In this document: positions 12,579 to 62,108 of the stretch, in pieces
Layout: every line of letters starts with the position of its first letter
Numbering within the stretch: the first letter of the stretch is position 1
NCBI RefSeq assembly: GCF_011742145.1
Contig: NZ_JAAQQU010000104.1
Coordinates: 81,938 to 145,937 of the forward strand
DNA: 64,000 bases
Direction: 5' to 3'
Source of the DNA: Flavobacterium sp. J49
Lineage (GTDB): Bacteria > Bacteroidota > Bacteroidia > Flavobacteriales > Flavobacteriaceae
The notes under the pieces: model-generated
What the model was told of the DNA's origin: nothing
What the model saw: the letters and a program-made list of their open reading frames with translations, nothing else
Databases searched by the model: none
Program-made: the position numbers and the translations under genes

Positions 12579-12647
12579 GGAATCCGTATTCCTGCTTTCT
12601 GTTACAATCAACTTTTGCAAAGTTGATTTGCTCGGCAATCAGGGCTA
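12579..12647 (-). repeat. dispersed repeat element, copy E
   Basis: Minus-strand copy in the flavin reductase leader. It starts TAGCCCTGAT and ends with the TAACAGAAAGCAGGAATA core. The interior holds a perfect hairpin of AATCAACTTT with AAAGTTGATT. Its 3' core differs from copy D in only a few positions. Confidence 0.65.
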
Positions 12648-12704
12648 AACAGAAATCGTCTTGCACTTTTGGCGCTTTTGTCTATATTTATAAAAAATTT
12701 CAGC

Positions 12705-13847
12705 ATGCAGTTTTCGGAAAAAAGAAACACCACCCGTTGGATTATCATCATGGCATCCTTTGTCATCGTGGCTTTAATTCTCTGGAACACTTATTCTTTT
12801 TTCCAAATCTTTAAAAACGAAGAACGTTTGAAGATGGAACTTTGGGCAAAATCCCAGGAAACCTTAATCAACGCTAACGAATATACCGATGTTGATTTAC
12901 CCTTGCAGATTATTCAAACAGCCACTATTCCTATCATAGTCACCGAAAAGGATTCTATCATCAACACCAAAAATATCGATGAAGATATTCTAAAAGACAA
13001 AAACAAACTCCTCCGTTTTTTGCAAAAACTGAAAAATCAAAATGACCCCATTGTCATGCAAATTTCAGAAGGCAAGACACATAATTTGTATTATGGTGAC
13101 TCTTCCTTGTTGAACAAACTAAAATACTATCCGGTGGCTTTGTTGCTGATTATTTTTCTCTTTGGTGGCTTGGTGTACAACTTCTACCGCAGTACCAAAA
13201 TGGCCACGCAAAATAAACTTTGGGCCGGAATGGCAAAGGAAACCGCACACCAAATCGGCACTCCATTGTCTTCCTTAATCGGTTGGCTCGAAATCATGAA
13301 AGCCGATAACGTGGCTGAGACTACCATCGTTGAAATTGAAAAAGACATCACGCGACTGCAAACCATCACCGACCGTTTTTCAAAAATAGGTTCCGAACCT
13401 ATATTGGAAAGGCGCAACATCATCGAAGAAACCGAACAATCATTTGATTACTTAAGATCAAGATTTTCCAAACAAGTGGAATTCTCTTTCAAAGCGCCCA
13501 AAAAACCGATTATGGTTTTGCTCAATCCGGCTTTGCACAGTTGGACTGTAGAGAACTTAGTCAAAAATGCCATCGATGCCATGAAAGGCCGAGGCAAACT
13601 TTCGGTAGCCATTGAAAGCGACAATACTTATGTGAAAATCTTGGTTTCCGACACCGGAAAAGGCATTCCTAAAAACCAATTCAAACGCGTTTTCGAACCC
13701 GGTTTTACCACCAAAAGACGTGGTTGGGGTTTGGGTTTATCTTTAACTAAAAGAATTGTAGAAGAATACCACAAGGGCAAAATCAAAGTCGCTCATTCTG
13801 AAATAGACAAAGGCACCACTATGCAGGTTACCTTTAAAAAGGCCTAA
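12705..13847 (+). CDS. sensor histidine kinase
   Basis: A 380-residue membrane kinase. One membrane helix near residues 12-33 and a second near 145-167 bracket a small extracytoplasmic sensor region. No HAMP or PAS domain is obvious. The phosphoacceptor is His182 in KETAHQIGTPLSSL. The ATPase domain has the N box ENLVKNAIDAM, G1 DTGKGI and G2 GWGLGLSLTKRIVEEY. No response regulator gene lies next to it, so it is an orphan here. I chose ATG 12705 (MQFSEKRNTTRW); the TTG upstream is less likely. Confidence 0.92.
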   Translation: MQFSEKRNTTRWIIIMASFVIVALILWNTYSFFQIFKNEERLKMELWAKSQETLINANEYTDVDLPLQIIQTATIPIIVTEKDSIINTKNIDEDILKDKNKLLRFLQKLKNQNDPIVMQISEGKTHNLYYGDSSLLNKLKYYPVALLLIIFLFGGLVYNFYRSTKMATQNKLWAGMAKETAHQIGTPLSSLIGWLEIMKADNVAETTIVEIEKDITRLQTITDRFSKIGSEPILERRNIIEETEQSFDYLRSRFSKQVEFSFKAPKKPIMVLLNPALHSWTVENLVKNAIDAMKGRGKLSVAIESDNTYVKILVSDTGKGIPKNQFKRVFEPGFTTKRRGWGLGLSLTKRIVEEYHKGKIKVAHSEIDKGTTMQVTFKKA

Positions 13848-13881
13848 AAAGAAAATCCCGACAACTCGGGATTTTCTTTTT
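13846..13881. terminator. bidirectional terminator between sensor kinase and HIT gene
   Basis: A perfect 16-bp stem, AAAAAGAAAATCCCGA with TCGGGATTTTCTTTTT, has a CAAC loop. It overlaps the stop codons of both convergent genes and has A- and T-runs on either side, so it can terminate in both directions. Confidence 0.92.
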
Positions 13882-14269
13882 ATAAATTACTTTGAATGGC
13901 TTTCGCTAAATCCTCGAACTCTTCTTGAGTCAAAGTCACTTTTCGTTGGAAACGCATGTCATCCATATCGTGAAGCGGAATCAAATGCACGTGAACATGC
14001 GGTACTTCTAAACCAACAACAGCCACGCCTATTCTTTTGCACGGAACGGTTTTTTCAACGGCTTTAGCTACTTTTCGGGCGAATTGCATTAAGCCTAAAT
14101 AGTGCGCTTCTTCCATGTCGAAAATCTTATTGATTTCCTGCTTCGGAATACAAAGTGTGTGCCCTTTGGCATTGGGATTCACATCTAAAAAAGCCAAATA
14201 ATTATCATCTTCAGCAATCTTGTAAGCCGGAATTTCTCCGTTGACTATTTTGGTAAATATGGAACTCAT
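13880..14269 (-). CDS. HIT family hydrolase
   Basis: A 129-residue histidine-triad nucleotide-binding protein. The catalytic triad lies in HVHVHLIPLHD near the C-terminus, and the N-terminal part IFTKIVNGEIPAYKIAEDD is typical of HinT-like AMP-lysine hydrolases. It should hydrolyse nucleotide phosphoramidates or similar linkages. It follows greA on the same strand with a 43-nt gap, the usual greA-HIT pairing in Flavobacteriia. Confidence 0.95.
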   Translation of the reverse strand: MSSIFTKIVNGEIPAYKIAEDDNYLAFLDVNPNAKGHTLCIPKQEINKIFDMEEAHYLGLMQFARKVAKAVEKTVPCKRIGVAVVGLEVPHVHVHLIPLHDMDDMRFQRKVTLTQEEFEDLAKAIQSNL

Positions 14270-14312
14270 TCTATCGTTTTAAAAAAATAACTGAACACTG
14301 AATACTAATCAA

Positions 14313-14789
14313 TTAGTCTCTTGAGATTTCTAAAATTTCAAAATTTAATTTACCGTTGGGCACACTGATTTCAGCTATTTCACCTACCCTTTTGCCCAAC
14401 AAACCTTTCCCGATTGGTGAACTCACCGAAATTTTTCCGGTCTTTAAATCGGCTTCGCTTTCGGCCACTAAAGTGTATTTCATTTCCATGCCGTTCGCTT
14501 GGTTTTTGATTTTTACATTAGACAAAACCAAGGCTTTGGAAACGTCTAATTGGGACTCATCAATCAATCTGGCGTTAGAATATACTTCTTCCAATTTGGC
14601 AATTCTCATCTCCAACATTCCTTGTGCTTCCTTAGCGGCATCATATTCTGCATTCTCCGATAAGTCACCTTTATCTCTGGCTTCTGCAATGGCTTGAGAA
14701 GCTTTTGGTCTTTCTATACTTTTAAGCTGTTCTAACTCGTCCTTCAATTTCTTTAATCCTTCTGCCGTGTAATACGATACTGTACTCAT
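14313..14789 (-). CDS. greA: transcription elongation factor GreA
   Basis: A 158-residue RNA-polymerase secondary-channel factor that stimulates cleavage of backtracked RNA. The N-terminal coiled coil (YYTAEGLKKLKDELEQLKSI) carries acidic tip residues in GDLSENAEYDAAKEAQ, and the C-terminal FKBP-like domain ends in SPIGKGLLGKRVGEIAEI. Full length. A strong promoter (14845-14874) lies upstream, and a hairpin with a U-run occupies the very start of the transcript (14813-14837). Confidence 0.97.
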   Translation of the reverse strand: MSTVSYYTAEGLKKLKDELEQLKSIERPKASQAIAEARDKGDLSENAEYDAAKEAQGMLEMRIAKLEEVYSNARLIDESQLDVSKALVLSNVKIKNQANGMEMKYTLVAESEADLKTGKISVSSPIGKGLLGKRVGEIAEISVPNGKLNFEILEISRD

Positions 14790-14812
14790 AATTTCATCAT
14801 TTATATAAATAG

Positions 14813-14837
14813 AAAAAATCCCATCGCAACGGGATTT
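14813..14837 (-). terminator. terminator-like hairpin at the 5' end of the greA transcript
   Basis: On the minus strand AAATCCC (14837-14831), an 8-nt loop and GGGATTT (14822-14816) are followed by more T residues. The stem begins only a few nucleotides after the predicted transcription start and ends about 24 nt before the greA ATG. It may be an attenuator or a stabilising 5' hairpin. E. coli greA also has a leader terminator, but the sequences are unrelated. Confidence 0.6.
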
Positions 14838-14844
14838 CTTTTTG

Positions 14845-14874
14845 CAAAGATATTATTTTTAAACTTATTTCAAA
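14845..14874 (-). promoter_or_regulatory. promoter of greA
   Basis: Minus-strand TTTG (14871-14874), an 18-nt spacer and TATCTTTG (14845-14852) fit the Bacteroidota promoter consensus closely. Transcription should start near 14839. Confidence 0.75.
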
Positions 14875-14950
14875 TTTGTTTACGTTGTATAACGTATGTC
14901 AAAGTTAATTAAATTAAATTTGTTTCGCTATAGTAATTCAATAAATTTAT

Positions 14951-15370
14951 ATGAAAAAGATAATCGTTCTGCTATTATTGTTGCCTTTTGTCTTTGGGTG
15001 TGAAAGTGGCAGCATTAATAATCGCAATCCCAACATTCCTAATTATACCGTTTATTTGCAAATCAATATGAGTTTGCCCGGTTATAGCAATTTGCAGTTT
15101 CCGAGCAATCATATTGTCGATTATTCACAAGGCGCCAGAGGTATAGTGGTTTTCAATAACGGCAGCGGATTTGTAGCTTTTGATTTGGCTTGTCCTAATC
15201 AGGCTTTTGCTTCTTGCACTACGCCGATGTCTATCAGTGGCATTGAAGCCACGTGTGATTGCGATAATACGGTTTACAATTTATTCTCGGGTCAAAGTCC
15301 GGGACAACAATATCCTATGAAACAATATCGTGTAGATATTAGCGGAAACACGTTAATCATAACTAATTAA
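14951..15370 (+). CDS. lipoprotein with degenerate Rieske-like domain
   Basis: A 139-residue lipoprotein: a signal sequence ending in FVFGC (lipid-modified Cys17), so attached to a membrane facing the periplasm or surface. The C-terminal half keeps the spacing of a Rieske iron-sulfur domain: C81-P-N83, then C102-x-C-D105, then a TVYNLFSGQSPG loop and a GNTLIIT end. Both iron-binding His positions are replaced (Asn83, Asp105), so a normal 2Fe-2S cluster is unlikely. The alignment is by eye. The gene stands alone between divergent greA and the convergent TonB receptor. Function unknown. Confidence 0.7.
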   Translation: MKKIIVLLLLLPFVFGCESGSINNRNPNIPNYTVYLQINMSLPGYSNLQFPSNHIVDYSQGARGIVVFNNGSGFVAFDLACPNQAFASCTTPMSISGIEATCDCDNTVYNLFSGQSPGQQYPMKQYRVDISGNTLIITN

Positions 15371-15400
15371 AAAAAGCCGAACAGTTCTGTTCGGCTTTTT
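15371..15400. terminator. bidirectional terminator
   Basis: A perfect 14-bp stem, AAAAAGCCGAACAG with CTGTTCGGCTTTTT, has a TT loop. It sits between the convergent lipoprotein and TonB receptor genes and serves both. Confidence 0.93.
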
Positions 15401-15402
15401 AT

Positions 15403-17538
15403 TTAGAATTTCAAAGTCAATCCCGCTAAGAAATTGATTCCGGCTTGCGGATAATAATAAGGGTAAACATCCCACATATATCCGTTGGACACATACTTTC
15501 TGTCGAACACATTATTGACCAAACCGGTTAAAACAACCGATTTAAAAATGGATTTGGGCTTAATTTCATAAGCAACATTCAAATCGTTTACAAAATAATC
15601 GGGCAATTTGGCTGAAGGCAACTCAATGTTGTTCATGTATTGCTCACCGACAAATTTGGACAACCATGATATTTGCAAGCTTTCCAAAGGTTTATAAACC
15701 AAAATATTTCCGGCTATAATTGAAGGCGAATAAGCGATATCTTTGGTTCCGACGTTGTCTCCTGAAACGTTCAAATCCAGATTTTTATTTTGGCTCAAAG
15801 TAAAATTCGGGCGAATGATTAGTTGTTTGTTCAATTCCAAAGTCACATCTACTTCCAACCCTAAACGGTAACTTTTTTCGCTGTTGGAGCGAATTGGATT
15901 GCCGACGTCGTCTAAATTTCCGGTTAGAATCAATTGGTCTTTGTAGGCCATATAATAAACATTGGTATTGATTTGGGCTTTGTCGGAAACATACCGCCAG
16001 CCTAATTCAAAATCATCCAACTTTTCCGGTTTGGCATTGCCTCCTTCATAATCGGTGCGGTTGGGTTCACGATGGGCCTTGGCATACGAAAAATAAAAGG
16101 TGTTCTTCCCATTCAAATTATAGTTCAAACCGGCTTTTGGATTGAAGAAATTAAAGCGATCATCTACCAAATCCGCCTGAACACCATTGGCTTCATAGTT
16201 TACGGTTCGGTATTGTAAATCGCCATACAAGCTGATTTTTTCTGTAATTTGATAATTGGCTTTGGCAAAAACATTTCCATCCGTTTTCACTGCGTAATCA
16301 TCGTAATAACGGTCTCCTAATTCGGTGGTAGAGGCAAATCGTGCCCAAATTACTTTACCGAAATGGTCGCCTTCGTATTTGTTCCAACCACCACCAAGAA
16401 TCAAATCAAGTTTGTCTTTTCGATAATTAGCCGAAAAAGTTGTTCCGTAAAAATCATTGTCTAACCATTTTTGGCGGACCAAATCAGTTGTATTAATTGT
16501 GGTATTTTCAATGACAATTGGTGTTAAACCATAGTCTCCGAAATCGGCATCTTCTTTATAATTTTCGTAGTAGCCTTTTCCTTTAGTGTAATGTAAGGCC
16601 AAGTTTGTACTCCAGTTTTCTGAAACCCTTTCGCTCCAGTGCAATTGGTAATGGTCTTGCTGATAATTGTCGGTTTCGTTGTCATAATAACGTGTATTCC
16701 CAAATTCATCGGTATACATTCCGGCCGAGTTGAATGTACGGTCTTCGTTCATGGTAAAACCATCTATTCCGTTCCAAGATTGGTATGTTTTTTCGGTTCC
16801 GCCAAAAACCAAAGCTTTGATTAAAGTGGTTTTCCCCACATAAGTACCTTGTAAAAAATAGGATTTCAAGTCCGAAGCCGCGCGGTCTATATAACCCTGC
16901 GAATCGATGTTAGACAATCTTCCGGCGAGTTCGAAACGATTGTTCAACAAGCCTGAACTAAATTTCACTGTGTGTTTTCGGGTATTAAAACTCCCAAACG
17001 AATTTGAAATTTCACCATTGCTCTGTTGGGCAAAACTATCCGTCAGCAAGTTCAAACTGGCACCAAAAGCTCCGGCGCCATTGGTTGAAGTGCCCACGCC
17101 TCGTTGCAGTTGCAAACTTTCCACGGAAGAAGCAAAATCGGGCATATTGACCCAAAAAGTTCCGTGACTTTCCGCGTCATTGTAGGGAATGCCATTAATG
17201 GTAATATTCACTCTGGTCGCATCGCTTCCGCGAACACGAATTCCGGTATAACCTACGCCATTCCCGGCATCGGAAGTCGTTACAACCGACGGCATGTAAT
17301 TCATCAGGATGGGAATGTCTTGCCCGAGATTGCGGAATTTGATTTCTTTTTTGTCTAAGTTGCTGAAAGAAACCGGTGTTTTAGTTGTGACGCGAACGGC
17401 GGAAACCAGCACTTCGTCAAGTGCGTTGACTTTGGTGGAATCTTTTGGCTTTTCTTGTGAGAAAGAGAAGCTAAAAGCAAAAAGCAAGAAGCAAGAAACA
17501 GTTGTTTTTGCTCTTAAAAAAGTGAATAAAGTTTTCAT
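15403..17538 (-). CDS. TonB-dependent receptor under TPP riboswitch, probable thiamine uptake receptor
   Basis: A 711-residue outer-membrane receptor. A signal peptide ends near FSFSFSQ. The plug domain follows (VRVRGSD-type segment GIRVRGSDATRVNITING, then NDAESHGTFWVNMPDF and RGVGTSTNGAGAFG). The rest is a beta-barrel ending in the aromatic GLTLKF. There is no N-terminal carboxypeptidase-like domain and no SusD partner, unlike glycan receptors. The leader carries a TPP riboswitch, so the cargo is most likely thiamine or a precursor, as for the OMR1-type receptors described in Bacteroidota. A PnuC/PnuT-type transporter gene in the operon just upstream fits this. Confidence 0.9.
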   Translation of the reverse strand: MKTLFTFLRAKTTVSCFLLFAFSFSFSQEKPKDSTKVNALDEVLVSAVRVTTKTPVSFSNLDKKEIKFRNLGQDIPILMNYMPSVVTTSDAGNGVGYTGIRVRGSDATRVNITINGIPYNDAESHGTFWVNMPDFASSVESLQLQRGVGTSTNGAGAFGASLNLLTDSFAQQSNGEISNSFGSFNTRKHTVKFSSGLLNNRFELAGRLSNIDSQGYIDRAASDLKSYFLQGTYVGKTTLIKALVFGGTEKTYQSWNGIDGFTMNEDRTFNSAGMYTDEFGNTRYYDNETDNYQQDHYQLHWSERVSENWSTNLALHYTKGKGYYENYKEDADFGDYGLTPIVIENTTINTTDLVRQKWLDNDFYGTTFSANYRKDKLDLILGGGWNKYEGDHFGKVIWARFASTTELGDRYYDDYAVKTDGNVFAKANYQITEKISLYGDLQYRTVNYEANGVQADLVDDRFNFFNPKAGLNYNLNGKNTFYFSYAKAHREPNRTDYEGGNAKPEKLDDFELGWRYVSDKAQINTNVYYMAYKDQLILTGNLDDVGNPIRSNSEKSYRLGLEVDVTLELNKQLIIRPNFTLSQNKNLDLNVSGDNVGTKDIAYSPSIIAGNILVYKPLESLQISWLSKFVGEQYMNNIELPSAKLPDYFVNDLNVAYEIKPKSIFKSVVLTGLVNNVFDRKYVSNGYMWDVYPYYYPQAGINFLAGLTLKF

Positions 17539-17605: not shown

Positions 17606-17636
17606 ATGACAAAAAGCGTGCACTCTTGTTTGTCAT
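17606..17636 (-). promoter_or_regulatory. possible expression-platform hairpin of the TPP riboswitch
   Basis: On the minus strand ATGACAAA (17636-17629) can pair with TTTGTCAT (17613-17606), enclosing a GTGCAC palindrome. It lies directly after the aptamer core. It could be part of a switch between terminating and non-terminating folds; this is inference. Confidence 0.35.
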
Positions 17637-17714
17637 TTTTCCCTTAGCAACATTACTTGCTCAGGTTCATTGGGTATAATCTCAGCTCGTTATTTAGAGC
17701 ACCCCTTTGAGACG
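17629..17714 (-). promoter_or_regulatory. TPP riboswitch (THI element)
   Basis: The minus strand has the aptamer's conserved blocks in order: AAAGGGGTGC, then CTGAGATTATACCC, then GAACCTGA, and finally a TAATGTTGCTAAGGGAA segment. These correspond to the thi-box core that binds thiamine pyrophosphate. The element ends about 90 nt before the TonB receptor start codon, so thiamine pyrophosphate should repress that gene. Confidence 0.95.
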
Positions 17715-17717
17715 TGG

Positions 17718-23219: not shown

Positions 23220-23247
23220 TTGGCTGACAAAAAAGGCCAACCCAAAC

Positions 23248-23311
23248 TAGCCCCGATTGGAGCGGCACCTGCCGGCAGGCAGGCGAAGTACAGCGGAAAG
23301 CGGGAATAGGG
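23248..23311 (+). repeat. dispersed repeat element, copy A
   Basis: It starts TAGCCCCGATTGGAGCGG and ends with TACAGCGGAAAGCGGGAATA. Its interior contains the perfect palindrome CCTGCCGGCAGG (23268-23279). A further inverted repeat, TTCGCTC/GAGCGAA (23333-23369), follows. It is GC-richer than its surroundings and lies between the convergent ahcY and rpmA genes. Confidence 0.7.
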
Positions 23312-23378
23312 AAACCAAGAACACCCAAACCTTTCGCTCCAAACCCGAGCCAAAGGCGAACTGAGCGAAGCTAAACAA

Positions 23379-33500: not shown

Positions 33501-35045
33501 ATGAATAAAGAATTAATCATCCGTAGTGGTGACAATGCTGTAGATTTTGCCTTATTAAAAGATGGAAAACTAATTGAATTACACAAACAGGAAGACACAA
33601 GCAACTTTCAGGTTGGGGATATTTTTATCGCCAAAATCAGAAAACCCGTTGCCGGACTAAACGCTGCTTTTGTAAATGTAGGCTTTGAAAAAGATGCCTT
33701 TTTACATTACCACGATTTGGGTCCAAACTTGGCTTCTTATTTGAAATTCATAAAACTTGTAAGCGCAGGTAAACTAAAAGATTTCTCCCTAAAAAACTTC
33801 CAGTTTGAGAAAGAGATTGATAAAGACGGCACCATATCAGATATTCTGAGTGCCAATCAATCCGTATTAGTACAAGTAGTCAAAGAACCTATTTCCACCA
33901 AAGGACCAAGAATCAGCACTGAGCTGTCTTTCGCGGGTAGATTTGTGGTTTTGGTTCCGTTTTCTGACCGCGTTTCTATTTCGCAAAAAATAGAATCCAA
34001 AGAAGAAAAAGACCGTTTGAAAAAACTAGTACAATCCATCAAACAAAGAGGTTTCGGGGTTATTGTGAGAACAGTAGCCGAAGGCAAAAGCATAGCCGAA
34101 TTAGAAAAAGATTTGCAGAACTTAATGAATAGATGGACTGCAATGTGTAAAAAATTACCAACCGCTCATCATCCGTCCAAGATATTAGGAGAGCTTAACA
34201 AAGCGTCTTCCATATTGCGAGATGTATTCAATGATACTTTCACGAGTATTCAAACAGATGATGAAGAGTTGTACCAAGAAACAAAGGACTATTTAGCCGA
34301 AATAGCTCCCGAGAAACAAAAAATAGTGAAGCTTTACCAATCGAAAGATGTGCCATTGTTTGAGAAATACCATATTGAGCGACAAATCAAAACTTCATTT
34401 GGGCGCACGGTATCCATGAGTAAAGGAGCTTATTTAATTATAGAACACACCGAAGCTTTACACGTTATCGACGTGAACAGCGGCAACCGTTCTAACAAAG
34501 CTTCTAACCAAGAAGATACCGCACTCGAAGTGAATATGATTGCCGCTGCCGAAATCGCCAGACAATTGCGTCTGCGAGACATGGGTGGTATTATTGTAGT
34601 CGATTTTATCGATATGCAAAATCCGGACAATCGCCAAGTGTTGTTCAACTTCCTTAGAGAAGAAATGAGCGACGATAAAGCCAAACACAAGATCTTACCA
34701 CCGAGTAAATTCGGATTAGTCCAAATCACTCGCCAACGCGTAAGACCTGAAGTTAACATAGAGACCAGAGAAGAAAATCCGAACAATTTGAGCGGTGATG
34801 TAGATGCACCCATCCAAATTATCGACAAGATTAATTTCTCCCTCGAAAAGATTATCAAAGACCACAAAAATGTGAAACTTAACGTTCACCCTTTCGTGGC
34901 AGCATACCTTAAAAAAGGTTTTCCATCATTACGTTCAAAATGGTTTTTTGAACATAAAAAGTGGGTGAAAATCATACCTCGTGACGCTTACACGTATTTA
35001 GAATACCATTTCTTTGACAATCAAGGAAATGAAATTAAAGAATAA
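33501..35045 (+). CDS. rng: ribonuclease E/G family endoribonuclease
   Basis: A 514-residue endoribonuclease that processes rRNA and mRNA. The S1-like RNA-binding part (FQVGDIFIAKIRKPVAGLNA, AFVNVGFEKDAFLHYHDLGP) is followed by an RNase-H-like/DNase-I-like core with the metal site VIDVNSGNRSNKASNQEDTA and VVDFIDMQNPDNR. It has no long RNase E-type scaffold tail, so it is RNase G-like. The zinc-link CPxC pair normally found after RQRVRP is absent. I chose ATG 33501; the frame upstream runs through word repeats. The last 60 or so bases are duplicated downstream (35151-35220). Confidence 0.93.
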   Translation: MNKELIIRSGDNAVDFALLKDGKLIELHKQEDTSNFQVGDIFIAKIRKPVAGLNAAFVNVGFEKDAFLHYHDLGPNLASYLKFIKLVSAGKLKDFSLKNFQFEKEIDKDGTISDILSANQSVLVQVVKEPISTKGPRISTELSFAGRFVVLVPFSDRVSISQKIESKEEKDRLKKLVQSIKQRGFGVIVRTVAEGKSIAELEKDLQNLMNRWTAMCKKLPTAHHPSKILGELNKASSILRDVFNDTFTSIQTDDEELYQETKDYLAEIAPEKQKIVKLYQSKDVPLFEKYHIERQIKTSFGRTVSMSKGAYLIIEHTEALHVIDVNSGNRSNKASNQEDTALEVNMIAAAEIARQLRLRDMGGIIVVDFIDMQNPDNRQVLFNFLREEMSDDKAKHKILPPSKFGLVQITRQRVRPEVNIETREENPNNLSGDVDAPIQIIDKINFSLEKIIKDHKNVKLNVHPFVAAYLKKGFPSLRSKWFFEHKKWVKIIPRDAYTYLEYHFFDNQGNEIKE

Positions 35046-35047
35046 AA
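34978..35047 (+). repeat. direct repeat, copy 1 (3' end of the RNase E/G gene)
   Basis: A 70-nt segment including the last 22 or so codons and stop. It is identical to 35151-35220 except for one T/C change, 173 nt apart. Confidence 0.9.
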
Positions 35048-35132: not shown

Positions 35133-35150
35133 CTCCTCTTAATATCAAAT

Positions 35151-35220
35151 CTCGTGACGCTTACACGTATTTAGAATACCATTTCTTTGACAACCAAGGA
35201 AATGAAATTAAAGAATAAAA
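35151..35220 (+). pseudogene. duplicated 3' fragment of the RNase E/G gene
   Basis: The 70-nt copy 2 of the rng tail: same frame content and stop as the gene end, with one silent T/C change. It is too short to encode a domain and has no start codon of its own. It is followed by its own terminator (35225-35254). Confidence 0.85.
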
Positions 35221-35299: not shown

Positions 35300-35352
35300 G
35301 GAGCTTTTTCCGGCTTTCCGCGCTACATGGTAGCTCGCTCCAATCCGGGCTA
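35300..35352 (-). repeat. dispersed repeat element, copy B
   Basis: On the minus strand it starts TAGCCCGGATTGGAGCG, carries the small hairpin GCTAC-CAT-GTAGC, and ends CGCGGAAAGCCGGAAA then AGCTCC. It lies just upstream of the T9SS protein gene; the rest of 35255-35399 shows no gene. Confidence 0.65.
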
Positions 35353-35399
35353 GGGTTTTGCATTAAAGTTCGTATATTTGATTTCGTAAATCATTCATT

Positions 35400-49619: not shown

Positions 49620-49634
49620 GATGTTTGTTTTTTT

Positions 49635-49726
49635 TAGCCCCGATGGCAGTGACATCCTTTTAGACCTGTCAGGTTTTAAAAACCTGACAGGTCTAAAAGA
49701 TATAACGGACAGCGGGAAATAGCTCC
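49635..49726 (+). repeat. dispersed repeat element, copy C, with 20-bp perfect palindrome
   Basis: It starts TAGCCCCGATGGCAGTGACA and ends AACGGACAGCGGGAAATAG then CTCC. Its interior is a perfect palindrome, TTTTAGACCTGTCAGGTTTT (49658-49677) with its reverse complement (49679-49698) and a one-base centre. It lies between nrdA and the 74-residue gene. Confidence 0.75.
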
Positions 49727-54243: not shown

Positions 54244-57200
54244 TTAAAAATAAGCTCTTAATTGTACGTTCCCGGTATGGATGGTTTGACTGGTTTCGGT
54301 TTTTCTGCCTTGGTAGTTGATGTTGATGTCTAAAAATTGGGTTAAATTCTTTTGCAACAACAATCTCCAAGTTAAATTCTTGCCCGGTTGTAATCCTTCT
54401 AACATTTGAAAAGCCACAGGCAGTAAGGCATCGCCAACAAACTTATTGTCGTAGAACGAGAATTCTCCGTTCATTGTAAATTTCTTTTCACTGGCAAAAG
54501 AAAAGGAAGTGCCAAAGCGACTTTGTTTTAATTGTTCCGAATTTCCAATTTGATTTTCTTTGTTTTGGTATTCGTAGAAAACATCCCAACTTGCATTTTT
54601 GTTAAACAAATAAGAGATTTTGGGGTTGAGTTGATAAGCTTTGACTTCAAAATTCTTGGCGGCATAATTTTCGGAGAAAAGTGCTGTTTTGATGATTTTG
54701 GTTCCCAAATTAAACAACCAAGTTTTTTGAACCAAATGGGTATACTGCAATTGGTGTGATTTATTTTCACTTTCCTGCGAACCAACCGAAAGCAAAGTTT
54801 GAAGCTCATTTTGGGTGAAAGTATAAGTCGTTGAATGTTTTTGCTTGCCTCGATTGTAAAACAAACTGTTGCGAATACTAGTGTTCAGCCCTAACAAATT
54901 ATTATCATCGGTTGAAAAAGGATTCAAGTCAAAATTATCTCCGTTGCGTTGGATTTTACGCTCTATTAAATAAGACGTTTGGTTGTAAAAATGAGACAGC
55001 ACTCTCTTAAAGCCTTTGGCATTTTGCCATTGTACCGGATTTAAAGTCAGCGATTGCGAAAATTTATTCTGATGGGTTTTGACAAAAATTTGGTTGGGCA
55101 AAAATATCCGAACATACCGCGCTTGGTCGGGAAACGGCGCTATTTCAAACTCTTGTAGCTCCTGAATACCGTTTCCGTTATAGTCATTCCAGGTGTAAAC
55201 GCCTTGTCCGGGTTCGACTTCAAGATAAGTAAATTCCTGTTGGGCAATAGTCCCGGAAGTGGTTTCATAGGCTGTGGTCACTTGGACAAATTGTTTGAAA
55301 AACTGATCGTTATACAACAACCTGGAGTTTAAAGACGGTTCGTTATCCCGAGTAGCATCTTCAAATTTAAGGTTTCTGTAGTTGACAAATAAGGACAAGT
55401 TGGATTGATCGGTTTGAACCAATCGTGATTTTAAATAATAGGACCGTGAGGTGTTTACCTTTTGCAGGAAACCGTTTTGCAAACTGTCATTAACGCGTTG
55501 CAAATAACCCAATTCTACATAAACCCTGGTGCTGTCTCCTCGGCCAACAAAGGCGCCATACTCTGTAAATCTTTGGCTTAAGGCTGATAGTTGGTTGGTT
55601 GCCACCAGTCTTTCTTTGTTGTCCTCCAAACGCAAAGAACCGCCAATCCAATTCTTTTTAAAATGATACCTGACTTGCGATTGGTTTCTGACAAAGGTTG
55701 ACTTCGCATAATCGCCATCGCTGTTTAAAGCACTGGTATTTTGAAGTAAGTTCCAATCTTTGAGTTTAAAAAACCCATTAACCAAATGACGATTTCCGGT
55801 AAAACTTTTGGAGAAATCTAACTTTTCAAACTGGTAAGTAAGCTTTCCTTTTTCGAGTAACGTAAAATCTAAACCATTAATAATTAAACTTTGATTTCCC
55901 GAGAAAGTGGTCAAATTCCAATCGCGGTTGAACTCGATATTGAACAAACGTTCAATCGTTCTGAAATCTTCTTCAACATATTGGTAATTCCCAAACGCGT
56001 CCACTTGCCATTTTTTGCTAAACAATCTTTGCTTGAAATTCAGTTTTCCGGCTATTCCTTTATTATTAGCATCATCAATAGAAGAAAACAGGTTTTGATC
56101 GTTATTGCTTACGCCAATTTCAAAATCAACCAACGTTTTTTCATTCGGATTGTATTTTCCCAGGACTGTAGCGATTTGGATTTTAGTTGGCGCAATCAAT
56201 CGAGTAATCGGTTCGTAATTGCCCTGCGGAACACCACCGATGGGTTCAACATATTGGTAAATCTTGCCAATGGCTGCGGTGTTGGTTAAAATATAATTTC
56301 CCAAATTGTTTCCCACCAACGTAAACCTGACATTGTACAATTCGTCATCCGGATTATTGGAATATTCAAAAACCTCAACCGTATTAACGAAGACTTTTTT
56401 GTACAAAATTTTGTTCTCAGAATACGTATCCAAATAAGCTGAAGGTGCATTCATCAGGTTGACATTGTCTCCGGCATTCGCCAAAATGGCCACTTGTTCG
56501 GGAGACAAACTTTGTTGCAACGGTTGGTTTTTAACATCGTTTTCAGAATACAAATAACCGCCCAAACTCCAATTTTTCGTAGTATAATTGGCACCGCCAT
56601 AAGTCACAAATCGGGTATAACTCCTATCCGAATATTGGTATTCAATGACGATTCGCATTTCGGAAGTGATGGGGAACAAAGACGTAAATGTAATTTCTCC
56701 GGCGTTGTAATCGATGATGTAATCGTTGTTTTCGCCGCGTTTTTTCAGAATACCGTTGACATAAACGCGCTCCGAACCCGAAATTACTAAGACATACAAT
56801 TCGCCATTATTGCCTCGGAGTTTATACGGTCCTTGATTGCCTTCTTGTCCGGTGAACGCGCTTTTGGCATACTGTCCGCGAACCAAAGCCGCAGAAGCAA
56901 AGATTTCGGTTTTGTTTTCTTCACCGCCAAAAGTGAAACGCGTTGACAATCCTTGCACTTTTTTGTTGAAATTCAGAAAGCGCGATTGTCGGTTTTCGAG
57001 GAATAAATCGCCGGCGCGGATGTTCCATTTGTCGGTAAACAATTCGATAAAAATTTGGTCAAACTCATCCAGTTTTTGCGAATACCCATTGTCCTGTAAC
57101 GGAATATTAGAATCCTGAATCGAGGCGCGAAGCGAGACTTTATCCGAGATTTTTCCGGTGATTTGTAAATCGAGATTGGACGTAACCGAAGCATTTTGAT

Positions 57201-57642
57201 TGTTCCCAATCGTCACGCCACGGGTGATGCTTCCGGAAGTGTTTAAGCCTTCAAACGGGACAAATTTTTTGACCGAGCGATCAATTTTATAGAGATTGCC
57301 GGCTTCGTTGGGCACGACTTTACTTTGGTCGTAAATGCTGTAGGTTTTGGTTAAATGCTCGGGGAATTTAAAATACCGAATGGTCAAACTGTCTGTTGAA
57401 GTAAAGCCATTTTTGAAAAATAATTTGCCGGTTTTGAAATCGACTTTGTAGAAAGTAGTGTCGATTTCTTGGCCTTCCCGATTCATCAATTTGAAGAAAC
57501 TCGGACTAATACTGACTTTTTCAATGGCTATGGTATCTTTAGTAACGGCAACTTTCTTGGTTTGGTACAACGATTTGATTTCCTGAGCCGAAAGACCGGA
57601 AAAACCGAGTAGCACCAATAATAATAGCCCTTTTTTAAACAT
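54244..57642 (-). CDS. large outer-membrane protein, SprA-reminiscent
   Basis: An 1132-residue exported protein; signal peptide ends near FSGLSAQ. About residues 130-260 contain ITRGVTIGNNQNASVTSNLD, ITGKISDKVSLRASIQDSNI and a KWNIRAGDLFLENRQS segment, which recall the repeats of SprA, the type IX secretion channel. It is less than half the size of SprA, so it is a relative at most. The remainder looks like beta-barrel strands, ending GNVQLRAYF. The family resemblance is by eye and moderate. Confidence 0.6.
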   Translation of the reverse strand: MFKKGLLLLVLLGFSGLSAQEIKSLYQTKKVAVTKDTIAIEKVSISPSFFKLMNREGQEIDTTFYKVDFKTGKLFFKNGFTSTDSLTIRYFKFPEHLTKTYSIYDQSKVVPNEAGNLYKIDRSVKKFVPFEGLNTSGSITRGVTIGNNQNASVTSNLDLQITGKISDKVSLRASIQDSNIPLQDNGYSQKLDEFDQIFIELFTDKWNIRAGDLFLENRQSRFLNFNKKVQGLSTRFTFGGEENKTEIFASAALVRGQYAKSAFTGQEGNQGPYKLRGNNGELYVLVISGSERVYVNGILKKRGENNDYIIDYNAGEITFTSLFPITSEMRIVIEYQYSDRSYTRFVTYGGANYTTKNWSLGGYLYSENDVKNQPLQQSLSPEQVAILANAGDNVNLMNAPSAYLDTYSENKILYKKVFVNTVEVFEYSNNPDDELYNVRFTLVGNNLGNYILTNTAAIGKIYQYVEPIGGVPQGNYEPITRLIAPTKIQIATVLGKYNPNEKTLVDFEIGVSNNDQNLFSSIDDANNKGIAGKLNFKQRLFSKKWQVDAFGNYQYVEEDFRTIERLFNIEFNRDWNLTTFSGNQSLIINGLDFTLLEKGKLTYQFEKLDFSKSFTGNRHLVNGFFKLKDWNLLQNTSALNSDGDYAKSTFVRNQSQVRYHFKKNWIGGSLRLEDNKERLVATNQLSALSQRFTEYGAFVGRGDSTRVYVELGYLQRVNDSLQNGFLQKVNTSRSYYLKSRLVQTDQSNLSLFVNYRNLKFEDATRDNEPSLNSRLLYNDQFFKQFVQVTTAYETTSGTIAQQEFTYLEVEPGQGVYTWNDYNGNGIQELQEFEIAPFPDQARYVRIFLPNQIFVKTHQNKFSQSLTLNPVQWQNAKGFKRVLSHFYNQTSYLIERKIQRNGDNFDLNPFSTDDNNLLGLNTSIRNSLFYNRGKQKHSTTYTFTQNELQTLLSVGSQESENKSHQLQYTHLVQKTWLFNLGTKIIKTALFSENYAAKNFEVKAYQLNPKISYLFNKNASWDVFYEYQNKENQIGNSEQLKQSRFGTSFSFASEKKFTMNGEFSFYDNKFVGDALLPVAFQMLEGLQPGKNLTWRLLLQKNLTQFLDININYQGRKTETSQTIHTGNVQLRAYF

Positions 57643-57676
57643 ATCCTATATAACGTAAAAATAGACTTTTTAATAT

Positions 57677-57722
57677 AAAAAAACCGCGAGCGCACTATAT
57701 TTTCGGCATTCGCGGTTTTTAT
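57677..57722 (-). terminator. terminator of the aspartate kinase gene
   Basis: On the minus strand AAAAACCGCG pairs with CGCGGTTTTTTT around a long imperfect loop. It follows the kinase stop at 57740 by about 20 nt. Confidence 0.7.
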
Positions 57723-57739
57723 ATTGATTATTTCTTTGT

Positions 57740-58993
57740 TTACTCTTTCGTCACCAATTGCATGGTTTCTCTTGAAATTTGTTTTAAGAGAACTGTTTTT
57801 CCTTTTTCTACCATTTCAGCGGCTTCTTTGGTAAAGTGGCGAATGGTATACAAAGACACGTTTTCATTATAGGCAACTTTGAATTTTTTCGACAAAATGG
57901 CTTTTAGTTCATTGAAGTTCCCGAATTTATCCTCCACACTCACCGAAAAACTAATCGCCGAATTCTGAATCAAACTTACTTTCATTTTATATTGGTGGAA
58001 CAAGGCGAAAATTTCGCTGATGTTTTCTTCCATGATAAAAGAGAAATCGATAGACGATAACGAAATCAGCAATTGGTCTCTTTTCACAATATAACAAGGC
58101 GTTTGCGGTTCTAAATCTTTCCCTTTGGAAACACTGGTACCCGGTAAAAGCGGATTGATAAACGATTTTACATGCAACGGAATTTCTTTTTTTTGTAGCG
58201 GTTGTAAGGTTTTCGGGTGAATAACGGTAGCACCGTAAAACGCTAGCTCAATCGCTTCGCGATAAGAAATTTGGTTTAACAAAATGGCGTTTTCAAAATA
58301 TCTCGGATCGGCATTCATCACACCCGGAACATCTTTCCAAATGGTTACGCTTCCTGCGTTTAAGCAATACGCAAAAATAGCTGCGGTATAATCCGAACCT
58401 TCACGGCCTAAAGTGGTGGTGAAATTGTTCTCATCCGAACCTAAAAATCCTTGCGTGATATTTAATGCTTTTTTCTTTACGCCTTTCGAAATCAACTGTT
58501 GGGTTTTTTCCCAATCCACATTCGCATCACGATAAGTATTGTCGGTTTTGATGAAATTTCTAACATCAATCCAGTTGTTTTTCAAGCCGGCTTGCGCGAA
58601 ATAATGGCTAACAATTGTAGTGGAAATAATCTCTCCGTAACTCACCACTTGGTCATACACGAAGTTATAATTCGGTGATTTATTGCTTCGGATAAAATAT
58701 TCTAAATCGGCAAAATGACTGTTTACGGCAAAGTAAACATCGTGCTCTTCGTCTTCAAATAAATCCATCAAAATTTGGTAGTGGTACTTCTTGACTTCCT
58801 GTAACGAAGAATGCAGTTCATTCGACTTCTCGAAATAATTCTTGATTACAAGTTCTAAGGCATTAGTGGTCTTTCCCATCGCGGAAATCACCAAAAGCGT
58901 GTCTTCATGACCTACTTTTTCTAATACACTAAATACGTTTTTAATACCTTCTGCATCTTTAACTGATGCTCCCCCAAATTTGAAAATTCTCAT
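57740..58993 (-). CDS. aspartate kinase
   Basis: A 417-residue kinase catalysing the first step of the aspartate pathway (lysine, threonine, methionine). It starts MRIFKFGGASVKDAEGIKNV; the catalytic domain contains the GREGSDYTAAIFA loop and VTIWKDVPGVMNADPR. A single C-terminal ACT region (about residues 300-400) is shorter than in E. coli LysC, and no homoserine dehydrogenase is fused. Whether it is feedback-regulated cannot be told. Confidence 0.93.
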   Translation of the reverse strand: MRIFKFGGASVKDAEGIKNVFSVLEKVGHEDTLLVISAMGKTTNALELVIKNYFEKSNELHSSLQEVKKYHYQILMDLFEDEEHDVYFAVNSHFADLEYFIRSNKSPNYNFVYDQVVSYGEIISTTIVSHYFAQAGLKNNWIDVRNFIKTDNTYRDANVDWEKTQQLISKGVKKKALNITQGFLGSDENNFTTTLGREGSDYTAAIFAYCLNAGSVTIWKDVPGVMNADPRYFENAILLNQISYREAIELAFYGATVIHPKTLQPLQKKEIPLHVKSFINPLLPGTSVSKGKDLEPQTPCYIVKRDQLLISLSSIDFSFIMEENISEIFALFHQYKMKVSLIQNSAISFSVSVEDKFGNFNELKAILSKKFKVAYNENVSLYTIRHFTKEAAEMVEKGKTVLLKQISRETMQLVTKE

Positions 58994-59053
58994 AATTAAT
59001 TAAATTCCACTGTTAAAAATTCCAAATTCCAACCGCTTGAGTATGGAACTTGA

Positions 59054-59542
59054 TTATGTATTATTTGAATTCAAATTTCTCAGAAAATTGGAAATTCCCT
59101 GTTCATCCATTTGAACAACGTCCCAATCTTCTAAGACTTTCGCCCCCGATTTTTTATAAAATTCTACTGCCGGCGTGTTCCAATCTAAGACATTCCATTC
59201 GATTCTTCGAACGTTGTCGGCTTTGCCTTGTTCCATAATTTTGGTGTACAAAGCGAAACCCAAACCGGTGCCGCGCATTTTTTCTTTGACAATCAAATCC
59301 TCCAAATGAATGGTTCTTCCTTTCCAAGTGGAATAACGATAATAGTATAAAGCCATTCCAACAATCTCTCCATCAACTTCCGCTACAAAAGTGTAAAACA
59401 AAGGGTTTTCTCCAAAACCATCGCGCTCTAAATCGGCCACTGTTACCACAACGGCATCCGGTTCTTTTTCAAAAACGGCCAATTCTCGGATTAAATCCAG
59501 TACCGCTTGCATGTCGGCTTTAGTTCCTTTTCGGATGTTCAT
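59054..59542 (-). CDS. GNAT family N-acetyltransferase
   Basis: A 162-residue acetyltransferase of the diamine/spermidine acetyltransferase-like type. It starts MNIRKGTKADMQAVLDLIRE and has IHLEDLIVKEKMRGTGLGFALYTKI (acetyl-CoA loop), then RIEWNVLDWNTPAVEFYKKSGA. Substrate unknown. It precedes aspartate kinase on the same strand with a 60-nt gap. Confidence 0.9.
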   Translation of the reverse strand: MNIRKGTKADMQAVLDLIRELAVFEKEPDAVVVTVADLERDGFGENPLFYTFVAEVDGEIVGMALYYYRYSTWKGRTIHLEDLIVKEKMRGTGLGFALYTKIMEQGKADNVRRIEWNVLDWNTPAVEFYKKSGAKVLEDWDVVQMDEQGISNFLRNLNSNNT

Positions 59543-59684
59543 TTGGTATAATTTTTAATACTTCGCAACCGTTCAATCTAAAGGTTTCGAGTGGCAAAAA
59601 TACAATTTATAATTTCTTTGCGAAATACATTTTTTCTTTGGCAAATTTAGCGATATTTGCAGCCACAACTACAACGATTTCGTA

Positions 59685-60692
59685 ATGGAAGAACGCAACA
59701 AAACCTTAGGTGAATTCATCATCGAAAAACAAGAAGAATTTAAGTATTCCTCCGGAGAATTATCCCGCATCATCAATTCCATCCGATTGGCCGCCAAAGT
59801 GGTGAATTACAAAGTCAACAAAGCCGGTTTGGTCGATATCGTTGGGGCAGCCGGAGACCAAAATATCCAAGGCGAAGACCAACAAAAATTGGATGTGTAT
59901 GCCAATGATGTTTTTATCCAAACGCTAATCAACCGTGAAATTGTATGCGGTATTGCTTCTGAAGAAAACGACGATTTTATCACCGTGGCCGGTTCCGATA
60001 AAACACACAGCAATAAATATGTGGTCTTGATGGATCCTTTGGACGGTTCTTCCAATATTGATGTCAATGTTTCGGTGGGAACTATTTTTTCGGTGTACCG
60101 CAGAGTGACACCGGTTGGAACTCCGGTAACTTCTGCCGATTTCCTGCAACCGGGAACACAACAAGTAGCCGCCGGATATGTGATTTACGGAACTTCGACT
60201 ATGTTAGTTTACACCACAGGTCATGGCGTTAATGGCTTTACTTTAAACCCGGCTATTGGAACGTTTTATTTATCGCATCCGAATATGCAGTTTTCGAAAG
60301 ACGGTAACATTTATTCCATCAACGAAGGCAATTATGTGCATTTCCCGCAAGGCGTTAAGGATTATATCAAATATTGTCAGCTAGAAGAAGGCGACAGACC
60401 GTATACTTCGCGCTACATCGGAAGTTTGGTTTCAGACATTCACCGCAACATGATTAAAGGCGGCATTTATATTTACCCAACCAGTTCCAAATCGCCTAAC
60501 GGAAAATTGCGTTTGTTATACGAATGCAATCCCATGGCGTTCATCGCCGAACAGGCCGGTGGAAAAGCTTCGGATGGTTTTGGTAGGATCATGGAAATCA
60601 GCCCGACAGAATTACACCAACGCGTGCCGTTCTTCTGCGGTAGCTTTAATATGGTAGAAAAGGCCGAGGAATTTATGGCGAAATATGTGTAA
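59685..60692 (+). CDS. fbp: class I fructose-1,6-bisphosphatase
   Basis: A 335-residue gluconeogenic enzyme. The metal motif is in [20 protein letters not shown], with the Glu of SEENDDF earlier, and the active-site end is [20 protein letters not shown]. Length is typical. A TAnnTTTG-like GATATTTG at 59652-59659 is a weak promoter. It is divergent from the acetyltransferase gene. Confidence 0.96.
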
Positions 60693-60694
60693 AA

Positions 60695-60812
60695 GTTACA
60701 AAGTGGCAGAGTCACAAAGTGGCAAAACTTTTAAGATTTAATAGAAAAGCCGGAATCAGAGATTCCGGCTTTTTACTTTGTAACTTAGCTACTCTGTAGC
60801 TTTGCCACTATT
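60695..60812. repeat. nested GTTACAAAG/GTGGCAAA words around a terminator
   Basis: On the left are GTTACAAAGTGGCAGAGT and CACAAAGTGGCAAAA; on the right the inverted forms CTTTGTAAC and TTTGCCAC. In the centre, AAAAGCCGGAATC (60745-60757) and GATTCCGGCTTTT (60761-60773) form a perfect 13-bp terminator for fbp, readable both ways. The GTGGCAAAG word also occurs at 46819. Confidence 0.75.
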
Positions 60813-61239
60813 TATTCATATGTGTCATTTCATATACAAACGTATCCAAATCAACATTCAAAATCAACAATGACATGGCTTTATCAATGATAAAAGGAAC
60901 GTTACCCGGCGTAAATCCTAGTGCCAAAGCAAACTTGGTTAAAATTTCTTTTTGTTTTGGCCCTAAAACATGGTCGGCATAAACCATACGGGACAAATCA
61001 TACAAACGCTCTAATCTTTGCGAATGCAAGTACGGCGGATTGATAGGATATTTTAAAGGATTTTCTAAAATCTCTTCGTATTCTGCTGCGGATATTTCCA
61101 AACGAACAGCCAGTTTGTCCAAAAACTCTTTTTCTTCTTGACTCAAATCGCCATCAGCGGTGGCAACACGAACAATAGCCGAAAAATGACCTTTGTTTCT
61201 GCTTTTAAACTCGCTATCAAATAAATCTGAAATTGACAT
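60808..61239 (-). CDS. TerB family tellurite-resistance-like protein
   Basis: A 143-residue helical cytosolic protein of the TerB type. It contains VRVATADGDLSQEEKEFLDK, the metal-binding-like acidic loop typical of TerB, and a second half with YADHVLGPKQKEI. TerB-like proteins have uncertain roles. I chose ATG 61239 (MSISDLFDSEFKSRNKG); a -7 element TATATTTG is at 61262-61269. Confidence 0.82.
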   Translation of the reverse strand: MSISDLFDSEFKSRNKGHFSAIVRVATADGDLSQEEKEFLDKLAVRLEISAAEYEEILENPLKYPINPPYLHSQRLERLYDLSRMVYADHVLGPKQKEILTKFALALGFTPGNVPFIIDKAMSLLILNVDLDTFVYEMTHMNK

Positions 61240-61261
61240 AATTATATGGGTTTTAATACTG

Positions 61262-61269
61262 CAAATATA
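61262..61269 (-). promoter_or_regulatory. -7 promoter element of the TerB-like gene
   Basis: Minus-strand TATATTTG matches TAnnTTTG and lies 22 nt before the ATG at 61239. Confidence 0.5.
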
Positions 61270-61388
61270 AGCCAATTTCCTTTTTTGAAAAACCAATTTC
61301 CAAAATGTTTTTCATCGATTTTAGGGTTTATTTTAAAAGAGCAATTAAAATTAATCGTAAGTTTACGTTCCAAACAACCAAAACTACA

Positions 61389-61982
61389 ATGTCAGATTTC
61401 TGGATATACTTTAATCTCGGATTAAAACATGTACTTGATATTTTTGCCTACGACCATGTTTTATTTCTCTTAGCTTTAACCGTTCCTTACGAATTTAAAT
61501 CGTGGAAAAGAATTTTAATTCTTGTTTCACTTTTCACTTTGGGTCATACTTTAGCCCTGTTTCTCTCGGTATTTAATGTCATTACCATCAAATCAAATAT
61601 CGTCGAGTTCCTGATTCCGATTACCATTCTAATAGCCGCTTTGTACAACATTATCGTTTCGGGTAAATCGAGCAAAAAAGACAGCATAACCTTTATTGGT
61701 ATCGTTACGGTTTTCTTTGGCGTTATCCACGGTTTAGGGTTTTCGAATTATTTCAACACCATTCTTTCAGGAAAACCAACCGACAAACTTTTGCCGTTAT
61801 TCGAGTTTGCGCTTGGGATTGAAGTTGCGCAAATCATAGTCGTGTTAGCCGCTTTACTTTTGGCTTATGTCGTTCAAACGCTTTTAAAATTCTCCAAACG
61901 CGACTGGGTTCTAATCATTTCTGCCTTTATCGTTGGGGTCGTCATTCCGATGATTTTACAAAGTGAAATTTGGGTTAAATAA
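61389..61982 (+). CDS. HupE/UreJ family membrane protein
   Basis: A 197-residue inner-membrane protein with about six hydrophobic helices. Its N-terminal segment FNLGLKHVLDIFAYDHVLF, then FTLGHTLALFLSVF and VIHGLGFSNYF match the HupE/UreJ_2 type, proposed as metal (nickel or cobalt) transporters; several His residues line the early helices. No hydrogenase or urease gene is nearby, so the substrate is open. ATG 61389 (MSDFWIYFN) is preferred to an earlier in-frame Met. Confidence 0.82.
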   Translation: MSDFWIYFNLGLKHVLDIFAYDHVLFLLALTVPYEFKSWKRILILVSLFTLGHTLALFLSVFNVITIKSNIVEFLIPITILIAALYNIIVSGKSSKKDSITFIGIVTVFFGVIHGLGFSNYFNTILSGKPTDKLLPLFEFALGIEVAQIIVVLAALLLAYVVQTLLKFSKRDWVLIISAFIVGVVIPMILQSEIWVK

Positions 61983-62013
61983 TTGTACAGAAGCGAAAGG
62001 TTTAGGTATATTT

Positions 62014-62108
62014 GCTATCCTTATTCCTGCTGTTCGTTACAATTTTTTGATTTGCCTTTCACTGGCGTTACAGGCCGATCAAAAAGATTTTCACTTCCAT
62101 CAGGGCTA
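62014..62108 (-). repeat. dispersed repeat element, copy D
   Basis: On the minus strand it starts TAGCCCTGATGGAAGTG, contains a long imperfect hairpin with TTTTTGAT/ATCAAAAA arms, and ends TGTAACGAACAGCAGGAATA then AGGATAGC. It lies between the HupE-like gene and the dCMP deaminase gene. Its 3' core is nearly identical to copy E. Confidence 0.7.

What the first reader, a model, noticed from the sequence alone, without database searches (positions are those of the whole stretch)
12579..62108. A five-copy family of short intergenic elements with fixed ends and variable internal hairpins
Copies lie at 23248-23311 (A, +), 35300-35352 (B, -), 49635-49726 (C, +), 62014-62108 (D, -) and 12579-12647 (E, -). 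All begin TAGCCC followed by a GAT triplet, and end with an AGCRGGAATA-like core. The interiors differ completely (CCTGCCGGCAGG palindrome, GCTAC hairpin, 20-bp palindrome, TTTTTGAT hairpin, AATCAACTTT hairpin). Constant ends with swapped hairpins suggest a modular element that acquires other repeats, or one whose ends are recognised. None carries a gene. Spurious reading frames through C and D share the peptide SLPSGLK, which independently shows the relation.
Basis: seen in the sequence. Interest (0 to 1): 0.7.

Follow-up and report, generated by a model that had tools for sequence, protein, structure and literature searches.

The report
DNA hairpins that swap their tips
These five repeats belong to a known but unexplained family of short hairpins (Flavo-1) that sits between genes in dozens of copies per genome in many Flavobacterium species; the stem and the place are kept while the tip is often a different one in a related species, and the way the stem pairs suggests that it likely works as folded DNA rather than as the RNA it is catalogued as.

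Summary
All five copies match Rfam RF01705, Flavo-1 (three over, two below its cut-off), filed as an sRNA of unknown function. The genome holds 74 matches (46 over the cut-off); 24 congeners hold 0 to 88, whereas 6S-Flavo RNA matches once in each of 25 genomes.

The stem is real: two variable pairs are Watson-Crick in 183 and 185 of 186 copies while using all four pair types. Unlike tRNA and 6S RNA from the same bacteria it has almost no G-U pairs (14 of 1,488, against 27 of 189 and 47 of 550). That points to folded DNA.

The interiors really differ site by site. Of 19 sites paired between this genome and F. buctense the tip is kept at 8, intermediate at 2 and unrelated at 9; at 4 of these 11 both adjoining flanks are conserved, at 6 one is, at 1 neither.

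A RAYT transposase is not the general mover: genomes with up to 88 copies lack one. Best reading: a REP/MITE-like non-autonomous DNA hairpin family whose tips are exchanged, probably by conversion between copies. The mobilising protein is unknown.

The parts
23245..23340 (+). Copy A, Flavo-1, long right end (class II); CCTGCCGGCAGGCAGG palindrome in the tip
   Evidence: RF01705 42.5 bits at 23245-23311; right end to GCTCC read; counterpart without the palindrome in F. buctense
35300..35355 (-). Copy B, Flavo-1, short right end (class I, ..AAAAAGCTCC); GCTAC CAT GTAGC tip
   Evidence: RF01705 35.0 bits, below the cut-off; matrix score 62.1
49632..49726 (+). Copy C, Flavo-1, class I, long palindromic tip; on the opposite strand it follows the T-run after a terminator-like hairpin downstream of nrdA
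   Evidence: RF01705 73.6 bits; context
61990..62111 (-). Copy D, Flavo-1, class II, between a HupE/UreJ_2-family gene and a comEB-like deaminase gene; tip differs in relatives
   Evidence: RF01705 68.6 bits at 62019-62111; neighbours; site comparison
12555..12650 (-). Copy E, Flavo-1, class II, AATCAACTTT tip, conserved in F. buctense
   Evidence: RF01705 40.1 bits at 12584-12650, below the cut-off; tip identity 0.97 with the F. buctense copy

Best explanation
These are copies of Flavo-1 (RF01705), intergenic hairpins whose stem and position are kept between species while the hairpin tip is often a different one, and they likely act as folded DNA, a non-autonomous REP/MITE-like repeat, rather than as RNA genes. 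Shown: copy number, patchy distribution, a co-varying, nearly always Watson-Crick stem with fixed G.A mismatches, near absence of G-U pairs, presence/absence at matching sites, unrelated tips at about half of the matched sites (with both adjoining flanks conserved at four), and another palindrome inside the tip of copy A. Inferred: (1) the strand that carries the G.A mismatches folds when the duplex opens; (2) tips are exchanged by gene conversion or template switching between copies, with the near-identical arms as the only homology; (3) copies spread now and then through a nuclease or transposase supplied in trans, not yet identified; (4) copies last where they do no harm, often after terminators and before promoters.
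For: 40 of 148 genomes of the order have it, in 13 of 62 genera. 186 distinct copies: variable pairs Watson-Crick in 183 and 185 against shuffle means of 70.5 and 60.3; G-U 14 and A-C 8 of 1,488 cells. tRNA acceptor stems: G-U 27, A-C 0 of 189; 6S-Flavo: G-U 47, A-C 5 of 550. The Flavo-1 strand is the more stable with DNA parameters in 172 of 186 copies. 19 paired sites: tip identity 0.76 or more at 8, 0.64-0.65 at 2, 0.58 or less at 9; random pairs average 0.42. At 3 of these 9 and 1 of the 2 both adjoining flanks exceed the 95th percentile of mismatched sites. At site D, eight species pairs with gene identity 0.85-0.90 have median tip identity 0.40 but 0.82 and 0.84 in the bases beside it. 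F. psychrophilum: hits lie in either sense and many outside the newly defined transcribed regions (PMC9723704, passages).
Against: No transposition was observed and no autonomous long copy found. At site nrdB-nrdA the tips (median identity 0.61-0.62 at gene identity 0.75-0.85) are not less conserved than the bases beside them (0.53-0.58 right, 0.44-0.45 left), and at site D the closest pairs (gene identity 0.90 or more) mostly share a tip, median 0.92, 2 of 6 below 0.6. Six of the 11 non-retained pairs have only one conserved adjoining flank and one has neither, so independent insertion is possible there. The clearest 'empty' D sites lie between short direct repeats and could be deletions. G-U scarcity is indirect: block exchange would also remove intermediates, and the matrix threshold could drop odd copies. 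A better match than the site partner among the other copies proves little, since the best of 73 comparisons has a median of 0.80 anyway. Orientation is not random (30 against 11 between same-strand genes, p = 0.004), which a neutral repeat need not show. No strong replication-strand bias was seen in one complete genome (24 against 18 of 46 listed hits, 4 left out at the origin bin; my sum over).
Confidence: 0.5

Rival explanations
1. Flavo-1 is a real structured RNA (sRNA or part of UTRs), as Rfam files it, present in many copies.
For: Covariation; several 5' transcribed regions in F. psychrophilum coincide with hits; one strand folds better with RNA parameters too, 151 of 186; Rfam type 'Gene; sRNA'.
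Against: Almost no G-U pairs, unlike tRNA and 6S RNA; 0-88 copies among congeners; both orientations, even in one gap: nrdB-nrdA holds it forward in ten loci detected by scan and reversed in L067, L085 and L087; many hits outside the newly defined transcribed regions.
Confidence: 0.22
2. A REP-type element moved by RAYT (Y1 HUH) transposases, with TAG-C as the foot tag and the mismatched hairpin as the substrate.
For: Hairpin with mismatches and a short 5' tag; in this genome the only Y1_Tnp match lies about 250 nt from a copy.
Against: Only 1 of the 30 fetched Y1 loci (60 matches in 30 genomes) has a copy over the cut-off within its flanks of up to 1.5 kb; a RAYT-like protein has no match in 9 of 25 genomes (own and 24 congeners), among them ones with 88, 66 and 57 copies; GTAG in only 2 of 186 copies.
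Confidence: 0.13
3. A cis-acting leader or insulator: the reverse strand lies just after a terminator or promoter and shapes transcription of the next gene.
For: Antisense bias between same-strand genes, 30 against 11; the reverse strand of several copies starts at the T-run of a terminator-like hairpin, and copies lie upstream of an rRNA operon in another Flavobacterium.
Against: All four neighbour arrangements occur; no T-run follows the hairpin in the copies read; at site D 16 of 66 loci with both genes hold a detectable copy, so the genes do without it elsewhere; the tips do not keep a sequence.
Confidence: 0.15

Closest known systems
Flavo-1 (Rfam RF01705)
   Same: Same family: all five copies match along the whole model
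   Different: Catalogued as an sRNA gene; here its stem statistics, copy numbers and changing tips look like a DNA repeat. Base variants (long right end; GCGTTAGGG base) are not part of the 76-position model as matched
GTAG/CGTC REP repeats (PMC3733652, passages read)
   Same: Short intergenic palindromes, variable loops, very uneven copy number; CGTC families occur in Bacteroidetes among other phyla and lack a dedicated transposase
   Different: Longer, with G.A-rich internal loops; no GTAG tag (2 of 186); G-U pairs rare, whereas that paper reports GT pairing as often seen in GTAG repeats; tips differ at matching sites
Integron attC sites (recalled; attC-like ssDNA motifs mentioned in PMC8632094, passages read)
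   Same: Constant pairing arms, variable central structure, one strand folds
   Different: No arrays seen; no integrase was looked for; scattered single copies
BOX/ERIC-type modular intergenic repeats (recalled, no call)
   Same: Constant ends with variable inner modules, between genes
   Different: Here the inner part is a nested hairpin that differs at matching sites; sequences were not compared

Membership tests
Flavo-1 (RF01705) | Covariance-model match | tested here: met
   A, C, D over the cut-off; E 40.1 and B 35.0 bits below it but full-length
Flavo-1 as an RNA gene | Discrete transcript from the Flavo-1 strand | not testable with these tools
   No RNA-seq held; PMC9723704 reports hits in sense or antisense and many outside its newly defined transcribed regions (passages)
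Structured RNA | G-U pairs tolerated, A-C not, in a co-varying helix | tested here: not met
   G-U 11 and A-C 8 of 744 cells at the four variable pairs, against tRNA 27 and 0 of 189 and 6S-Flavo variable pairs 16 and 2 of 250
GTAG REP / RAYT system | GTAG at the hairpin foot | tested here: not met
   2 of 186 copies
GTAG REP / RAYT system | RAYT gene flanked by the repeat | tested here: not met
   1 of 30 fetched Y1 loci, of 60 matches; copy-rich genomes without a RAYT-like match
MITE / non-autonomous transposable element | Presence/absence at matching sites | tested here: met
   Site D filled in 16 of 66 loci with both genes, two more truncated on reading; 3 sites filled here and empty in F. 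buctense and 2 the other way, on reading
MITE / non-autonomous transposable element | Target-site duplication and an autonomous partner | tested here: inconclusive
   AAATGG direct repeat at one site only; no long copy in held sequence
Integron attC | Integrase and tandem cassettes | not tested
   Copies are scattered singles; no integrase search was made

The most novel reading that the evidence does not exclude
Flavo-1 is not an RNA but a genome-wide set of folded-DNA docking sites whose hairpin tips are traded in place among dozens of loci by a dedicated hairpin-recognising recombinase or HUH-type nuclease: a cassette-swapping system without arrays and without a known enzyme.
Probability: 0.15. 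Interest if true: 0.85.

Novelty: new variant of a known kind. Interest (0 to 1): 0.58.

Why it matters
Flavo-1 is named in a review's section on the most abundant small RNAs, without a function (PMC9029176, passages). If it is a DNA element, automated annotation marks dozens of false RNA genes in a Flavobacterium genome, and the family becomes a natural record of exchange between dispersed short hairpins that share only about 20-nt arms. Counting G-U against A-C in co-varying stems is a cheap test that could re-sort other orphan 'RNA' families.

Tried and rejected
RAYT as mover: Pfam Y1_Tnp sought in 30 genomes and a RAYT-like protein in 25; no general association. Autonomous parent: of 146 strong 5' arms in the held sequence 137 have a 3' arm in reach, 5 do not (variant or broken copies on reading) and 4 lie too near an end; none encloses a gene; whole genomes were not searched for this. 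Replication-strand bias: weak (24 against 18, one genome, my reading). Intrinsic terminator: no T-run follows the hairpin in the copies listed. Recent near-identical copies as proof of movement: in one genome a unit of 129-137 nt is shared at 90.5-93% between a lone copy and three copies next to repeated DNA; that DNA holds 16S rRNA in the one locus examined (L216); suggestive only. Interior repeats as free-standing families: in 458 kb of this genome the CCTGCCGGCAGG-type pattern occurs 4 times in or near copies and 4 elsewhere, ACCTGTCAGG 3 and 0, GGATTGGCC 2 and 3 (nine bases, chance level), two more patterns 0 and 0; an outside source is thus shown only for the first. The first tRNA control was mis-registered (10 of 27 used) and was replaced. 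The Fisher tests used 1,302 cells for the whole stem; the right number is 1,488 (8 pairs x 186), which only lowers the G-U share.
Full report
What is there. The window lies in a 3.05-Mb draft genome; the best named relative of one window protein is F. buctense at 99%. A two-arm matrix finds the same five in the window and nothing near in shuffled sequence; its training set includes A-D, so this is not independent of them.

What is known. Weinberg et al. 2010 list Flavo-1 as probably an RNA, probably not cis-regulatory, in Bacteroidetes (PMC2864571, table passage). In the F. [quoted passage not shown] A review lists the family without a function (PMC9029176, passages). Searches for Flavo-1 in the held library gave five papers; two searches for palindromic or miniature repeats with Flavobacterium gave 3 and 6 papers, none with this family in its title or the abstract start shown, and I read passages of only two of those. 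Subscription papers are mostly not held, so absence from print is not claimed.

Copy number. Own genome: 74 matches at E <= 0.001, 46 over the cut-off, with 150 of 791 candidates scored. A named complete genome has 84, F. buctense 71. In 148 genomes of the order 40 have it, in 13 of 62 genera. By contrast 6S-Flavo RNA matches exactly once in 25 of 25 genomes, 8 of them over its cut-off.

Anatomy. Consensus TAGCCCsGATNGNAGYGG - tip - NYGGANAGCsGGA. In 186 distinct copies from the sequence held (matrix score over 30) the outer variable pair is Watson-Crick in 183 (C-G 101, T-A 41, A-T 24, G-C 17) and the next variable pair in 185 (T-A 75, A-T 54, G-C 51, C-G 5); shuffles average 70.5 and 60.3. 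Between and inside them lie fixed mismatches: A.G in 183, G.A in 183, A.G in 177. The strand with these purine mismatches is the more stable one in 172 of 186 copies with DNA parameters and 151 of 186 with RNA parameters. Right ends come in classes: AGCTYC directly (24 of 74), GCTYC further on (37), neither (13, including a variant with a GCGTTAGGG base). In this genome the tips fall into recurring types by pattern: AAATCCTTTT..AAAAGATT 19, TACCNYGTA 17, CATCCTTTT..AAAAGAT 16, CCTCGNAGAG 8, the rest 14 of 74.

DNA or RNA. A co-varying RNA helix should show G-U pairs and few A-C. In the eight stem pairs (1,488 cells) there are 14 G-U and 8 A-C; at the four variable pairs 11 and 8 of 744. 27 tRNAs from the same sequences: 27 and 0 of 189 acceptor cells, 13 and 0 of 130 T-stem cells. 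6S-Flavo of 25 genomes: 47 and 5 of 550, variable pairs 16 and 2 of 250. The near-equality of G-U and A-C is what a DNA constraint predicts. Block exchange of tips could also hide intermediates, and the score threshold could drop odd copies, so this is strong but not final.

Tips at matching sites. I compared stretches of C95 of this genome with the collinear contig of F. buctense. Of 27 distinct copies tested from this side, 16 had a filled partner, 4 scanned as empty (one proved on reading to hold a variant copy) and 7 could not be paired. Three more pairs were added, two from the reverse direction and one by right flank and position; the last was partly recognised by its conserved tip, which counts against my claim. 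Of the 19 pairs, tip identity is 0.76-0.97 at 8, 0.64-0.65 at 2 and 0.30-0.58 at 9; random non-orthologous pairs average 0.42, 95th percentile 0.74. Outer flanks of the pairs matched by BLAST. For the bases adjoining the element I used mismatched sites as control: of the 11 non-retained pairs 4 (D; L290 15895; L292 8742; L300 15616) exceed the control's 95th percentile on both sides, 6 on one side and 1 on neither; of the 8 retained pairs 5 do on both and 3 on one. Copy A differs from its partner by a palindrome inserted in the tip. In all 9 low pairs a better-matching tip exists among this genome's other copies (0.65-0.85), but the best of 73 comparisons has a median of 0.80 for any copy, so donors are possible, not shown. 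At site D across 16 loci, eight pairs with gene identity 0.85-0.90 have median tip identity 0.40, right 35 nt 0.82, left 21 nt 0.84; six pairs at 0.90 or more have 0.92, with 2 below 0.6. At nrdB-nrdA the contrast is absent: tips 0.61-0.62, right 0.53-0.58, left 0.44-0.45 at gene identity 0.75-0.85; there seven of ten forward copies keep the rare A-T base pair and GATTG arm under differing tips.

Place. Copies lie between genes by a simple ORF caller (not curated annotation; two of 74 were flagged inside weak or over-long ORFs). With the element forward, neighbour strands are (-,-) 30, (+,-) 14, (-,+) 13, (+,+) 11 of the 68 with both neighbours; 30 against 11 has p = 0.004. The reverse strand of several copies starts at the T-run of a terminator-like hairpin (C; L004, L148, L167, L173), and in another Flavobacterium a copy lies about 480 nt upstream of 16S rRNA. 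I take this as survival between transcription units; the orientation bias is unexplained.

Partner. The only Y1_Tnp match of this genome lies about 250 nt from a copy, but the other 29 of 30 fetched Y1 loci have no copy over the cut-off in their flanks, and copy-rich genomes lack RAYT-like matches. No autonomous copy was found in the held sequence.

Conclusion. The finding is a real, known family. What is new is the case that it is a DNA hairpin repeat whose tips change at fixed sites. Shown: numbers, stem constraint, differing tips at matching sites. Inferred: folding as ssDNA, conversion as the route, a mover in trans.

Noticed in passing
window 34968-35047 and 35141-35220: The last about 80 bases of the RNase E/G-type gene are repeated at 95% identity 173 bases downstream, beyond the stop codon, just before copy B.
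   Followed up: no
window 17622-17716 (-): TPP riboswitch match below its cut-off (36.9 of 54.3 bits, E 0.0014) upstream of the 711-aa ORF on the minus strand.
   Followed up: no
L021, L026, L143, L146, L150, L152, L179 (own genome): A sister class with a different base (GCGTTAGGG-like, right side often ..CCCGACCC..GCCCAAA; L150 is cut by a contig end) but the same core and similar tip types.
   Followed up: partly
L030, L142; L179; L267: Other palindromes (CCTGCCGGCAGG type; CCTTCGGCAGTCGCTTCGCTCGTGT) sit within the GATTG of the 5' arm, the second at the same spot in two different elements.
   Followed up: no
L211-L214 (G010): Four 144-146-nt copies share a nested hairpin with GAGCGACC..GGAAG(C/T)TCC-like core inside otherwise diverged tips.
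   Followed up: no
L216-L218 (G040); L155, L159, L164 (own genome): Copies lie upstream of 16S rRNA (shown in L216; L217 and L218 share its 3.1 kb at 99%) or of similar promoter-like DNA at contig ends; the DNA shared between L216-L218 ends at the Flavo-1 right end.
   Followed up: partly
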